A DNA stretch of 64,000 bases from Sitta carolinensis (Eukaryota; Chordata; Aves; Passeriformes; Sittidae), in the NCBI GenBank assembly GCA_032173965.1, contig CM063310.1:63735-127734 (forward strand), read 5' to 3'. Positions 777 through 57,700 of this stretch are shown piece after piece. The position numbers and the translations under genes are program-made. The notes under the pieces are model-generated. The model made no database searches and was not told the DNA's origin. It saw nothing but the letters and a program-made list of their open reading frames with translations. Numbering within the stretch: the first letter of the stretch is position 1; every line of letters starts with the position of its first letter.

Positions 777-2425
777 GTGAGAGGGGCGGGGTCAGCAGGG
801 GGCGGGGCCTGAGTGGGCGGGGCCTGGGGCGGGGCTCGGATGCTCCGCCACGAAATAGGGCGGAGTCCCCGCGTGGGCGGGGCTTCCGACAGGCGGGGCT
901 CAGCGGCCCCGCCCCACCCCGCACAAAGGCGGGCGTGGTCCGCTTGGAGTGGGCGGGGCCGAACGGGGCGGGGGCTTCCAGGCTCCACCCAATGCTCAGC
1001 CACGCCCACCCGCGGGTCCCGCGGGGGCGGGGCTCCCGTGGGTGTGGTCTCACTGTGGGCGGGGTTGGAAGGGGTGTGGTCGGTGGGTGTCGGTCACAGC
1101 GGGGTTCAGCTTTTGGGGTGGGCGTGGCTTTGAGGGGCGTGTCGGTGTGGGCGGGGCCGGGGTGGGCGTGTCTGACGCTGGCTCCGCCCAGGGCCGCGCG
1201 GGGCGGCGGCCGCCCCAGCAGGGGGCGCTGTTCCAGGCGCGGCGGCGCGCGCGGGGCCGGAGGGCGGGGCTGGAGGCGGAGCTTCAGCAGCTGGTAACGG
1301 GGGGACCCCGAAAATGGGGGGGACACCCCGAAAACGGGGGGGCACCCTAAAAATGGGGGGACACCCCGAAAACGGGGTCTGGGGGGCGGGATAGGGGCAG
1401 CGTCAGCAGCTGGTAACGGGGGCACCCCAAAAACGGGGGAGACACCCTAAAAATGGGGGGACTCCCCGAAAATGGGGTCTGGGGGGCGGGATAGGGGCAG
1501 CTTCAGCAGCTGATACTTGTTGACCCCGAAAATGGGGGGGTGCAGGGGGAAACGCCCCAAAAATGAAGGAGGGCGGGGGCGGTACCCCAAAAATGGGGGT
1601 CTGGGGGGATGGAGGCAGAGGGAGGACCTTAAAAATGGGGGGTCACCCCAAGAAAGGGGGGGGACAGGGGCTTGGAGGAGGGGGAGCTTCAGCCGCTGGT
1701 AATGGGGGTAGGGGGATTTTTGGGGGACCCCAGAAGTGGGGGGGTGGAGGTGGGGGAGCTTCAGCAGCTGGTAATGGGGGGGGGGTACCCCAAAAATGGG
1801 GGGGACGGGCGGGGTCTGGGACCAAAACTTTGGGTTCTTTTGGGGAGGGTCCGGGACACTGGGAGCCCTCTGGGGGTCCCTCGGCTTTGTGGGGTCACGG
1901 ATGGGGGGCTCTCCTCTGATCCCAGGGTCCCTTTCGGGGTGGGTTTGGGGGCTCCCTTTGTGCGGCGGGGGACCCCCTGAGGGTCGGGGGGGCTCCCCGG
2001 GCCCCCCCAGAGCCCCGAATTGCCCCGAGCAGGATCTGGGGGCAGAGGCTGCGGCTCCCACCGGGACTGGGCTGGTCAGCGATGGAGCCGAGCGTGGGGA
2101 CGGCGGGTACGGACCCCAAAAAAACCCAAATCCCCTCCCAAAATAAACCAAAAACCCAAAGAAACACCCCCAAATTTCCCCCTGGCCCCAAAACGCCCCC
2201 TCAAAAAAAACCTAAGAAACGACACCCCCCCCCCCAAAAAAAAAAACCCCATCCGGAAAACCTCCACAACTCCTCCCAAAAGAACCCCAAAAAAACCCCT
2301 AAAAACCCAGAAACCCCAAATCTCCCACTGGCCCCAACCCACCCAAAAAAAACCCCAGAACTCCCAAAAAACCCCAAATCTCCCTCTGGCCCCAAACACA
2401 CCCCCCCCCCCCAAAAAAAAATCCA

Positions 2426-2457
<32 letters not shown>

Positions 2458-54244: not shown

Positions 54245-54783
54245 GCGCGGGGCGCATTCCAGGCGTGCTGCCCCAGTTTTGGGGTGCCAGTCTCGGGGTC
54301 CCCCCATTCCAGGCGTGCTGCCCCAGTTTTGGGGTGCCAGTCTCGGGGTCCCCCCCATTCCAGGCGTGCTGCCAGTTTTGGGTCCAGTCTCGGGAGTCCC
54401 ATTCAGGCGTGCTGCCGTTGGGGTGCCAGTCTCGGGGTCCCCCCCATTCCAGGCGTGCTGCCCTGTTTTGGTTTGGGGATTGGTGGCCAGTGTCTCGGGG
54501 TCCCCCCCATTCCAGCTGTGCTGCCCTGTTTTGGGGTGCCAGTCTCGGGGTCCCCCCCATTCCAGCTGTGCTGCTCCTTGTTTTGGGGTGCCAGTCTCGG
54601 GGTCCCCCCGTTCCAGGCGTGCTCCCGCAGTTTTGGGGTGCCAGTCTCGGGGTCCCCCCCATTCCAGGCGTGCTGCCCCAGTTTTGGGGTGCCAGTCTCG
54701 GGGTCCCCCCCATTCCAGGCGTGCTGCCCCAGTTTTGGGGTGCCAGTCTCGGGGTCCCCCGTTCCAGGCGTGCCCCCCCGGCC
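54245..54783 (+). repeat. FTSJ1: 52- to 57-base array of 3' splice sites before the FTSJ1 start codon
   Basis: About eleven units of ccccccattccaggcgtgct / gccccagttttggggtgcca / gtctcggggtc. Each unit carries ATTCCAG followed by GCGTGCTGCC or a close variant. The last copy (GTTCCAG then GCGTGCCCC) lies directly before the ATG at 54784 and is the likely real acceptor. Confidence 0.88.
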
Positions 54784-57700
54784 ATGGGTCGCTCGTCCAA
54801 GGACAAGCGGGACATTTATTACCGGCTGGCCAAGGAGGGCGGCTGGAGAGCGCGCAGCGCCTTCAAACTGCTGCAGCTGGAGCAGCGCTTCGGCATCTTC
54901 AACGGTACGGGATTGTGGGATTGGGATTGTGGGATGGGGATTGTGGGATCGGGAATGGGGAACGGGATCAGGAATGGGGCATTCACCTTCAAACTGCTGC
55001 AGCTGGAGCAGCGCTTCGGCATCTTCAACGGTACGGGATTGTGGGATGGGGGATTTGGGGGGAATGGGGATGGGGAATGGGGGGAATGATGGGGGGGGGC
55101 CATGGGTGTGTAACTGGGGGCACTGGGAGCACTGGTGAGTCACTGGTCCGTATTCGTACTGGTCCGTACTGGTCCGTACTGGTCCTACTGGTCCGTACTG
55201 GTCCGTACTGGTGTCCCAGGCGTGCACCGGGCCGTGGATCTTTGTGCCGCCCCCGGGAGCTGGAGCCAAGTGCTGAGCCGGCACCTCAGGTGGGATGGGG
55301 GGGACTGGGGGGGACATGGGGGGGACTGGGGATCCCAGTCTGGGGGGGCCCCGGGGGTTCCCGGGGGTCTCAGCCCGCTCTGCCCCCAGGGGTCCCGGGG
55401 GGTCCCCAGCCCAGGTGGTCGCCGTGGATCTCCAGGCCATGGCGCCGCTGCCGGGGGTGCTGCAGATCCAGGGGGACATCACCAAGGTGGGGACCCCCAA
55501 AACCCCCCTGAGACCCCAAACCCCCTGAGAACCCCCAAAAACCCCCCGAGCCCCCAAACCACACTGAGACCCCCCAGAGCACCCCCAAAAACCCCCCGAG
55601 CCCCCCCAGAGCCCCCAAACACCTCCTGAGCCCCCAAACACCCCAGACCCATTTCCCCCATGTGCCCCCAGACCCCATTTACCCCGTGCTCCCAGCCCAT
55701 TTCCCCCCCCGTGCCCCAGCCATTTCCCCTGTGCCCCCAGCCCATTTCCCCCCATGCCCCAGCCCATTTCCCCCTGCCCCCAGCCCCATTTCCCCCCGTG
55801 CCCCCAGCCCCATTTACCCCGTGCCCCAGCCCCATTTCCCCCCCGTGCCCCAGCCATTTCCCGGCCCCCATTTCCCCCCCGTGCCCCAGCCCATTTCCCC
55901 GTGCCCGCCATTTCCCACATGTCCCCAGGCTCCACAGCCAGGAGATCCAGCGCCACTTCGAGGGGCACCGGCCGACCTGGTGGTCTGTGATGGAGCCCCT
56001 GACGGTGAGTCTGGGGGGGCCGCGACCCGGGGGGGACACCTGAACCCCCCTCCAGCTCCCCCCCAAACCCCCTGGCCCCCCCAAAGCCCCCTGACCCCCC
56101 TGTCCCCACAGTGACGGGGCTGCACGACCTGGACGAGTACATCCAAGCCCAGCTGCTGCTGGCAGTGAGTCTGGGGGTCCAACCCCCCCAAATCCCCCTC
56201 ACAACCCCTGGGGACCCCCCGAACCCGCAGGGAGAACCAGACCCCCCCCAGGCTCCCCAAACCTATTTTTTGGGGGGTGGTCTCTCCCCTTTCAGGCGCT
56301 GAACATCACCACCCACGTCTTGAAGACGGGAGGCACCTTCGTGGCCAAGGCGAGTCCCTGGGGGGATCCCCCCCAAAACCAGGGGGGGCTGGGGCTTCCC
56401 CCAGCCCCAGAAAGGGGGTCCTGACCCCCCGATCCCCCCAGATTTTCCGGGGCAAGGACGTGACCCTGCTGTACTCCCAGCTGCGCCTCTTCTTCCCGAG
56501 GTCACCTGTGCCAAACCCCGCAGCAGCCGCAACTCCAGCATCGGTGCGAGCCCCTGCCCCGGCCGGGGGGACCCCCTGAGCTCGGGAGACCCCCCTGAGG
56601 TTGGGGGACCCCCCCTGAGTTTGGGGGACCCCCCCTGCCCTGTCGTTGCAGAGGCTTTCGTGGTGTGCCGGGGGTACAGCCCCCCCAGGGCTTCGTGCCC
56701 ACCATGGACAACCCCTGCTGGACCCCGACGCGGGTGAGGGGGCTGGGGGGGTCCCGAGGGCTTTGGGGGGCTCTCTGGGGGGTCCCGAGGGGTTTGGGGG
56801 GGTCCCGAGGGGTCTGGGGGGGGGGTCCCAAGGGGTCTGGGGGGGGGGTCCCGAGGGGTTTGGGGGGCTCTCTGGGGGATCTGGGGGAGTCTCTGGGGGA
56901 TCTGGGGGGTTTGGGGTGCTCTTTGGGGGTCTCTGGGGGTCACTCTGGGGGGTTTGGGGGGGTCCCGAGGGGTTTGGAGGGGTCTCTGGGGGGTCCCGAG
57001 GGGTTTGGGGGGGTCCCGCAGAGTCTCTAGGGGGTCTCTGGGGGATCCCGAGGGGTTTTGGGGGGGCTCTCTTGGGGGTCCCTGGGGGGGTTTGGGGGGG
57101 TCGTTTGGGGGTGTCTGGGGGTGGTCCCTGAGGGATCTGGGGGGTCTCTGGGGGGTTTGGAGGGGTTTTGGGGGGTCCCGGGGGGTCTCTAGGGGGTCTC
57201 TGGGGGGTCCCGAGGGGTTTGGGGGGCTCTCTGGGGGGTCCTGAGGGGTTTGGGGGTGGTCTCTGGGGGGGGTCTGAGGGGGTCCCTGGGGGATCTGGGG
57301 GGTCCCGAGGGGTTTGGGGGGTTTTCTGAGGGGTCCTGGGGGGTCTGGGGTGCTCTCTGGGGGGGGGTCTGAGGGGGTCCCTGGGGGATCTGGGGGGTCC
57401 GAGGGGTTTGGGGGGCTCTCTGGGGGGTCCTGAGGGGTTTGGGGGTGGTCTCTGGGGGCATTGCCAGGGCTCCGTGGGGGTCTGGGGAATTCTGGGGGGA
57501 TTTAGGGGGGTTTGGGAGGGTCCTGTGGGGTGTTTGGATGGGTCCCAGGGAGGATTTTGGGGTCCCTGGGGTATTTTAGGGGGTGTGGGGGTCGTCGGGA
57601 GGTCCTCAGGACATTTTGGGGGGGTCCCTGGTGGGATTTTTGGGGAGGTGGGTGTGGTTGAGAGGTCTCTGGGGTCATTTTGAGGGGTCCCTGGGGGGAT

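What the first reader, a model, noticed from the sequence alone, without database searches (positions are those of the whole stretch)
1192..55045. Introns seeded by copies of exon edges: thirteen independent cases in four genes
In at least thirteen places the tandem array beside an exon contains copies of that exon's edge with its splice site. Donor-side: HDAC6 1293, 8612, 13516, 22419; WDR45 26043 and 27386; GPKOW 33859, 37909 and 38666; FTSJ1 54904. Acceptor-side: HDAC6 15043 (copy at 13751), WDR45 29900 (copy at 29993) and FTSJ1 before 54784. Donor copies always lie in the downstream intron and acceptor copies in the upstream intron, as expected if arrays grow outward from exon boundaries. 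The arrays differ in sequence and period, so this looks like a recurrent process rather than one mobile repeat. Possible drivers, inferred: replication slippage or R-loop-linked break repair starting at the GT/AG-flanking G-rich tract. A consequence would be decoy splice sites that compete with or buffer the true ones.
Basis: seen in the sequence. Interest (0 to 1): 0.92.

Follow-up and report, generated by a model that had tools for sequence, protein, structure and literature searches.

The report
Exon-edge stutter on bird dot chromosome
In four genes of what is likely a bird's tiny 'dot' chromosome, introns hold repeated partial copies of the neighbouring exon's edge with its splice site; this matches a DNA 'stutter' published in 2026, likely arises by local tandem duplication, and would leave spare splice signals beside the real ones.

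Summary
At score >=20, adjacent introns match 11 of 96 edges; opposite introns 0 of 88, reverse strand 0 of 96, non-adjacent introns 0 of 96. Control edges in the same genome give 0 of 50.

The phenomenon is already described: "exon stuttering" on chicken dot chromosomes (Hron et al. 2026, PMC12954441).

The stronger reading, that exon edges seed introns and arrays grow outward, is not supported. Edges are copied less often than ordinary intron sequence: 10/40 at the donor border against 22-27/40 further in. The three WDR45 introns with copies have counterparts in the paralogue WDR45B (by eye). G-tracts at donors do not distinguish copied edges. Best reading: local tandem duplications fill introns, a minority straddle the border, and selection likely keeps one working splice site.

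One apparently new pattern: arrays of a shared ACTGGT unit (often ACTGGTCCRT) end at 3' splice sites of at least 12 genes on small contigs. This argues against purely local origin for that family.

The parts
1272..1781 (+). HDAC6 donor edge at 1293 and three intronic copies (junctions 1413, 1699, 1771), all with GT
   Evidence: (score 24.5 vs 7.0 max shuffle)
8573..9634 (+). HDAC6 donor edge at 8612 (CD1 region) and copies at junctions 9158, 9319, 9623; a 7-bp array lies between source and first copy
   Evidence: 58 bits; 32.0 vs 11.5
13503..13684 (+). HDAC6 donor edge at 13516 and six copies; one (13602) has AT for GT
   Evidence: (21.5 vs 11.5)
22385..22825 (+). HDAC6 donor edge at 22419: 57-bp unit, three near-perfect copies whose donor GT reads CT and which are in frame and open (19 aa each), plus a shorter copy at 22812 with GT
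   Evidence: 69.9 bits; 37.5 vs 13.5
13747..13796 (+). copy of the HDAC6 acceptor edge of exon 15039 (28 exon bases at 96%), 1275 bp upstream
   Evidence: 48.1 bits; 33.0 vs 0; best non-adjacent intron 11.0
24736..26062 (-). WDR45 donor edge at 26043 and copies at junctions 25960, 25827, 25683, 24751 (plus a weak one at 24386)
   Evidence: (30.0 vs 9.5)
27010..27411 (-). WDR45 donor edge at 27386 and copies at 27073 and 27021 (weak one at 26929)
   Evidence: (26.0 vs 13.0)
29986..30029 (-). copy of the WDR45 acceptor edge of exon 29900, 118 bp upstream
   Evidence: (28.0 vs 6.0)
33415..33898 (-). GPKOW donor edge at 33859 and copies at 33777 and 33429
   Evidence: (31.0 vs 12.5)
37432..37948 (-). 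GPKOW donor edge at 37909 and copies at 37710 and 37451 inside an ACCAGT array
   Evidence: 75.8 bits; 40.0 vs 9.0
38411..38434 (-). GPKOW copy of donor edge 38666 (weak)
   Evidence: (16.5 vs 11.0)
54865..55050 (+). FTSJ1 donor edge at 54904 and copy with junction 55031 (45 exon bases, 100%)
   Evidence: 89.7 bits; 40.0 vs 7.0
54255..54773 (+). FTSJ1 51-bp array before exon 54768 with six partial acceptor-edge copies (weak)
   Evidence: 17.5 vs 16.0
8315..8477 (+). ACTGGT array ending 41 nt before the HDAC6 acceptor of exon 8519
27621..27686 (-). ACTGGT array ending 27 nt before the WDR45 acceptor of exon 27593
28619..28854 (-). ACTGGT array ending 16 nt before the WDR45 acceptor of exon 28602
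36362..36871 (-). ACTGGT array ending 10 nt before the GPKOW acceptor of exon 36351
55131..55212 (+). ACTGGT array ending 7 nt before the FTSJ1 acceptor of exon 55220
37506..37903 (+). same unit in antisense (ACCAGT in the GPKOW sense), starting 5 nt after donor 37909; a further cluster of it at 37271-37446 lies 462 nt from the donor
36153..36231 (+). same unit in antisense, starting 17 nt after GPKOW donor 36249

Best explanation
The introns of HDAC6, WDR45, GPKOW and FTSJ1 contain same-strand partial copies of the adjacent exon's edge with its splice site, and these likely arose as local tandem duplications whose unit happened to straddle the exon border on what is likely a bird dot microchromosome. 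Shown: the copies are local, direct and specific to the adjacent intron; about 75% of these introns is tandem array; copying falls from the intron to zero about 48 bp inside the donor-side exon; the 50 edges tested on other contigs show none. Inferred: units arise by slippage, break repair or non-crossover exchange in GC-rich repetitive DNA. Selection on the protein and on splicing keeps one copy as the exon edge, so the surplus copies fall in the intron by default. Donor edges are copied more often than acceptor edges because a donor needs only a few intron bases, whereas an acceptor needs tens of bases of branch point and pyrimidine tract. Whether the copies act as decoy splice sites is untested. 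That the genome is a bird's and C36 a dot chromosome is my inference; no call names either.
For: Specificity: 11 of 96 edges score >=20 in the adjacent intron; 0 of 88 in the opposite intron, 0 of 96 on the reverse strand and 0 of 96 in non-adjacent introns. The published screen passes 5 of 48 introns, with no control hit. Positional profile of copying across borders, 40 introns of >=150 bp. Introns are 75% and exons 8% tandem array; C36 flanks are 62% and 70%, and the WDR45B region is 10%. Paralogue controls: WDR45B 0 of 20 edges at >=16 (three of the 20 at doubtful exon calls) and HDAC-paralogue pieces on C13, C3, C34 and C32 0 of 30. 14/96 against 0/50, p=0.0025; 11/96 (>=20) against 0/50, p=0.016. 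The C32 piece is 70% GC with 6% arrays and the C34 piece 69% GC with 37% arrays; neither has copies, so GC content alone seems not to be enough. GATA1 on the same contig has three copies of its C-finger exon donor edge, each matching 40 of 40 exon bases. The same phenomenon is documented in chicken, with nanopore-read support for PHF8 introns.
Against: No reads, RNA, second haplotype or second species was available, so neither the mutational mechanism nor recency is shown here. Single-base frameshifts seen by eye in four coding exons point to residual homopolymer errors, so copy counts could be slightly off. Introns with copies are longer than those without (median 840 against 430, p=0.005), and many control flanks are short, so part of the contrast may be length. 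The donor/acceptor difference (9 against 2 of 48 each at >=20, p=0.051) is only suggestive. PQBP1 on the same contig has no copy at >=16 among 10 edges (highest 14.0). One array family (ACTGGT) is shared between contigs, which strictly local duplication does not predict.
Confidence: 0.85

Rival explanations
1. Exon edges are active seeds: a process starting at the splice junction (R-loop or G-quadruplex linked break repair) copies the edge outward and builds the intron array.
For: Copies do start at exon borders and 34 of 38 carry the splice dinucleotide; HDAC6 introns are strongly G-rich in sense (skew 0.37).
Against: Border 24-mers are copied less often than intron 24-mers; GGG near the donor does not distinguish copied donors (p=0.46); sense skew is about 0 in WDR45 and -0.18 in GPKOW, which also have copies. 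R-loops themselves were not tested.
Confidence: 0.08
2. Assembly artefact: long-read assembly over-expanded or mis-joined repeats at exon edges.
For: Frameshifts seen by eye in four coding exons suggest homopolymer errors; some copies are identical to each other (22477 and 22534; two of three GATA1 copies).
Against: Most copies differ from each other and from the source by substitutions and lie at different spacings; the general structure was checked against raw nanopore reads in chicken PHF8.
Confidence: 0.05
3. Chance matches of G/C-rich exon edges to low-complexity introns.
For: Composition is extreme; two extra edges that reached 16 look like this, and 3 of 96 edges reach 16 in some non-adjacent intron.
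Against: 0 of 96 edges reach score 20 in a non-adjacent intron, together far more sequence of similar composition; shuffled introns give no passing hit.
Confidence: 0.02

Closest known systems
Exon stuttering / sequence stuttering on avian dot chromosomes (Hron et al. 2026, Genome Biol Evol evag038, PMC12954441; sections 7, 9, 16 and the first part of section 8 read, plus abstract and passages)
   Same: Partial copies of the exon edge with donor or acceptor in the adjacent intron, imperfect tandems, repeat-filled introns, small GC-rich chromosomes, a paralogue elsewhere unaffected, exon parts of tens of bases.
   Different: Added here: the copying profile across the border, and ACTGGT arrays shared between contigs, whereas they conclude a local origin in general. 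Their list of 115 genes is in a supplement I could not read; 'HDAC6' occurs 0 times in the main text.
Intron gain by tandem duplication of an AGGT-bearing segment (e.g. potato RdRp case, PMC4974935; seen only in the search listing with the start of its abstract)
   Same: Tandem duplication as a source of splice signals.
   Different: Here the tested introns are old: positions shared between WDR45 and its paralogue WDR45B.
Ordinary minisatellite/VNTR arrays in introns (general knowledge)
   Same: Period, imperfect copies and local homogenisation.
   Different: Units here include exon sequence and splice sites at 13 edges.

Membership tests
Exon stuttering (Hron et al. 2026) | Exon-sequence hits in adjacent introns, >=20 bp and >=42.1 bits, above shuffled control | tested here: met
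   8 hits in 5 of 48 introns; 0 of 16 distal, 0 of 18 other-gene and 0 of 5 shuffled hits pass
Exon stuttering (Hron et al. 2026) | Copied source ends within about 1 base of the exon border (over 90% of their cases) | tested here: met
   In 4 of the 5 passing introns the hit reaches the border exactly; in the fifth it stops 4 bases short; junction-spanning copies at 13 edges
Exon stuttering (Hron et al. 2026) | Introns heavily covered by simple repeats | tested here: met
   75% of intron bases in TRF arrays
Exon stuttering (Hron et al. 2026) | Location on dot microchromosome | tested here: inconclusive
Exon stuttering (Hron et al. 2026) | Absent from paralogues on other chromosomes | tested here: met
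   0 of 20 WDR45B edges (three at doubtful exon calls) and 0 of 30 HDAC-paralogue edges; one piece of five (L068) dropped because it contains N
Exon stuttering (Hron et al. 2026) | Intron length polymorphism between individuals | not testable with these tools
   One assembly only
Intron gain by tandem duplication | Intron is new at its position | tested here: not met
   For WDR45 only: introns 1, 6 and 8 have counterparts in WDR45B (intron 1 within one codon); compared by eye
Single mobile repeat / introner | Same unit at many introns | tested here: not met
   Edge probes match no non-adjacent intron at >=20 (0 of 96). The separate ACTGGT family is shared, but over 4,929 unmasked flank bases only one gene seen on two contigs, two loci of one contig, and one locus fetched twice resemble each other

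The most novel reading that the evidence does not exclude
Splicing sorts the arrays: on dot chromosomes one shared AG-free unit, ACTGGTCCRT, repeatedly becomes the array that abuts 3' splice sites, read towards the exon (and in antisense it abuts donors). Unrelated genes would thus converge on, or exchange, the same splice-compatible repeat, and the repeat would become part of the acceptor region itself.
Probability: 0.35. Interest if true: 0.75.

Novelty: new member of a known kind. Interest (0 to 1): 0.5.

Why it matters
It adds quantified cases of exon stuttering and corrects the causal reading: introns are the source and exon edges the constrained tail. Two GC-rich control pieces without copies suggest that GC content alone does not produce stuttering. 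If the ACTGGT result holds, it links a mutational repeat process to the spliceosome's sequence rules, which could be tested across bird genomes. Intact duplicate donors next to real ones, including in GATA1, make a natural test of how the spliceosome picks among near-identical sites.

Tried and rejected
Rejected by test: (a) general AG avoidance near acceptors. AG is rarer than CT 60-200 nt upstream in 27 of 35 informative introns (p=0.0019), but the AG odds ratio is low everywhere and not lower near acceptors, so base composition can explain it. (b) Complementary arrays bringing intron ends together, an idea from recalled work that one search did not find: same-intron pairing is no stronger than permuted (p=0.96, 30 introns). 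(c) G-tract at donors as driver. (d) Accelerated loss of donor GT in copies.

Weak support only: the GT odds ratio is lower within 200 nt of donors (0.64-0.66) than beyond (0.93, 0.86), though GT against AC there is not significant (22:14 introns, p=0.24). Of non-overlapping arrays, the 22 touching acceptors are AG-poor (p=0.02), and the 32 touching donors are T-poor (p=0.0006) and GT-poor (p=0.0095), uncorrected over 16 tests.

Led nowhere: SUV39H1, EBP, TIMM17B and SYP gave no tblastn match on the fetched C36 stretch. Pfam matched 3 of 10 exon pieces. PDB search of the L057 exon gave 0 hits. A literature search for four 15-mers of the ACTGG units found 0 papers; the listings showed nothing further on point. 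Scripts 35, 63 and 67 ended in errors: output printed by 35 and 63 before the error is used; 37 redid the lost part of 35 and 68 redid 67; SLC35A2 (63) was not redone.
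Full report
1. What was checked. Exon edges were placed by a spliced aligner written for the purpose and refined by eye. This gave 52 exons and 48 introns totalling 37,169 intron bases. 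That the genome is a bird's is inference; no call names it.

2. The observation. Probes of 30 exon and 10 intron bases were scanned, ungapped, against the adjacent intron, 60 shuffles of it, the intron on the other side of the exon, the reverse strand and the non-adjacent introns. At score 20 or more: adjacent 11 of 96, opposite 0 of 88, reverse 0 of 96, non-adjacent 0 of 96. At 16 or more: adjacent 14 of 96, and 3 of 96 edges reach it in some non-adjacent intron. The 13th (FTSJ1 acceptor, upstream of my gene model) passes narrowly. The published exon-stuttering screen, re-run here, passes 5 of 48 introns and no control.

3. The copies. There are 38 copies, 30 donor and 8 acceptor. 34 keep the splice dinucleotide; splice-site scores are equal to the source in 19, weaker in 11 and stronger in 8. 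Three copies at HDAC6 22419 are near-perfect 57-bp units in which GT has become CT. Of the 30 donor copies, 7 would lengthen the exon in frame without a stop, 3 of them the CT copies; the frame at HDAC6 1293 was assumed.

4. Where copying happens. The share of 24-mers that have a copy (20 of 24 bases) in the intron was profiled across borders of 40 introns. Donor side: 0/36 at 48 bp inside the exon, 5/40 at 16 bp inside, 10/40 at the border, 22/40 at 16 bp into the intron, and 23-27/40 out to 96 bp. Acceptor side: at most 2/40 inside the exon, 3/40 at the border, 7/40 at 16 bp, 13-18/40 from 32 bp. Exon edges are therefore the fading tail of a process that fills introns (75% TRF arrays, against 8% in exons). 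The donor/acceptor difference fits the shorter sequence need of a donor, but at p=0.051 is only suggestive.

5. Controls in the same genome. The window lies on contig C36 (1.99 Mb) of a 1.03-Gb assembly. WDR45B on C23 gave 0 of 20 edges and 11% array in introns; three of those edges are at doubtful exon calls. Pieces of HDAC paralogues on C13, C3, C34 and C32 gave 0 of 30, with flanks often shorter than in the window; a fifth piece was dropped for N. The C32 piece has 70% GC and 6% arrays, the C34 piece 69% and 37%. GATA1, next to HDAC6 on C36, has three copies of the C-finger exon donor edge, each with 40 of 40 exon bases; it is the only one of 6 GATA1 edges at 16 or more, and PQBP1 has 0 of 10.

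6. Age of the introns. The three WDR45 introns with copies have counterparts in WDR45B, two at the same codon and phase and one within a codon (by eye). Those introns were not created by the copies. The other genes were not tested this way.

7. Known phenomenon. Hron and colleagues (2026) describe this as exon stuttering on chicken dot chromosomes: 115 genes, 236 introns, copies including splice sites, sources at the exon border, and intron lengths that vary between individuals (sections 7, 9, 16 and part of 8 read). They leave the mechanism open, naming replication stress with DNA structures or meiotic exchange. My reading agrees with theirs and adds the border profile and the same-genome controls.

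8. A shared unit at acceptors. The exact 20-mer ACTGGTCCGTACTGGTCCGT occurs 135 times in the genome against 0 for the reversed control; 99 of the 100 places listed are on contigs of 2.0 Mb or less (lengths). By contrast, ACTGGGAGC repeats (563 matches, 100 listed) also occur on large contigs, including near the end of a 154-Mb one. In the four genes there are eight ACTGGT clusters. Five in sense end 7-41 nt before an acceptor (chance of ending so close 0.010-0.097 each). Two in antisense start 5 and 17 nt after a donor; the eighth, also antisense, lies 462 nt from the donor. Clusters at 43610-43709 and 44651-44731 lie outside curated genes. In the C36 flanks 13 clusters are listed: one ends at a GATA1 acceptor and three at copies of one unidentified acceptor edge; the other nine were not assigned.

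9. Outside C36's sampled part I fetched 26 stretches covering 24 loci, looking only at the end the ACTGGT direction points to. By my reading 17 end at an acceptor followed by open exon-like sequence, 3 are unclear, 1 abuts a donor in antisense, 2 do not, and 1 is cut off. Eight of the 17 are backed by protein matches or near-identical flanks: eIF4A1-like, LAMTOR4, PRMT5 at two loci, an FGF homologous factor, and fibrillarin, a sodium:solute symporter and a RUS1-type (UVB_sens_prot) protein. With HDAC6, FTSJ1, GPKOW, WDR45 and GATA1 that is 12 genes. In the 20 arrays measured there are 17 AG against 594 CT dinucleotides, largely because the unit itself has no AG. Looking at one end only, and at the first hits listed, are limits of this sample; two further places (L013 on C30, L014 on C36) do not show it.

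10. Judgement. The ACTGGT pattern is the part most worth following.

Noticed in passing
window 8315-8477, 27621-27686, 28619-28854, 36362-36871, 55131-55212; L041-L066: Arrays of an ACTGGT unit (often the AG-free ACTGGTCCRT) end at 3' splice sites in at least 12 genes on small contigs, read towards the exon; in antisense they abut donors (36153-36231, 37506-37903).
   Followed up: partly
C36:61200-61612 (GATA1, about 2.1-2.5 kb left of the window start): Three copies of the GATA1 C-terminal zinc-finger exon's donor edge (40 of 40 exon bases each) in the next intron.
   Followed up: partly
C36:201327-201637 (minus strand): Acceptor-edge stutter mixed with ACTGGT units: the same exon-like start (GGTAACGTGCGGCGCATGCACGCGG) occurs three times, each behind an ACTGGT array; gene not identified.
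   Followed up: no
window ~27471-27492, ~13487, ~55965, ~56500: Single-base frameshifts, seen by eye, inside conserved exons of WDR45, HDAC6 and FTSJ1 (two), probably homopolymer assembly errors.
   Followed up: no
window 4130-8519: The first deacetylase domain of HDAC6 looks degenerate: VLIVDW (about 7515) is followed by SHRPG rather than DVHHG, and one search shows no match above 28 bits to the PPGHH exon here; the second domain keeps these motifs.
   Followed up: no
window 22442-22605: Three 57-bp copies of the HDAC6 donor edge are in frame and open (19 aa per unit) but share a GT-to-CT change at the donor, so one mutated unit probably spread within the array.
   Followed up: partly
   Followed up: partly
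G000 C4:152.94-153.60 Mb and others: ACTGGGAGC repeats (563 matches) occur near the end of a 154-Mb contig as well as elsewhere, unlike the ACTGGTCCGT unit.
   Followed up: no
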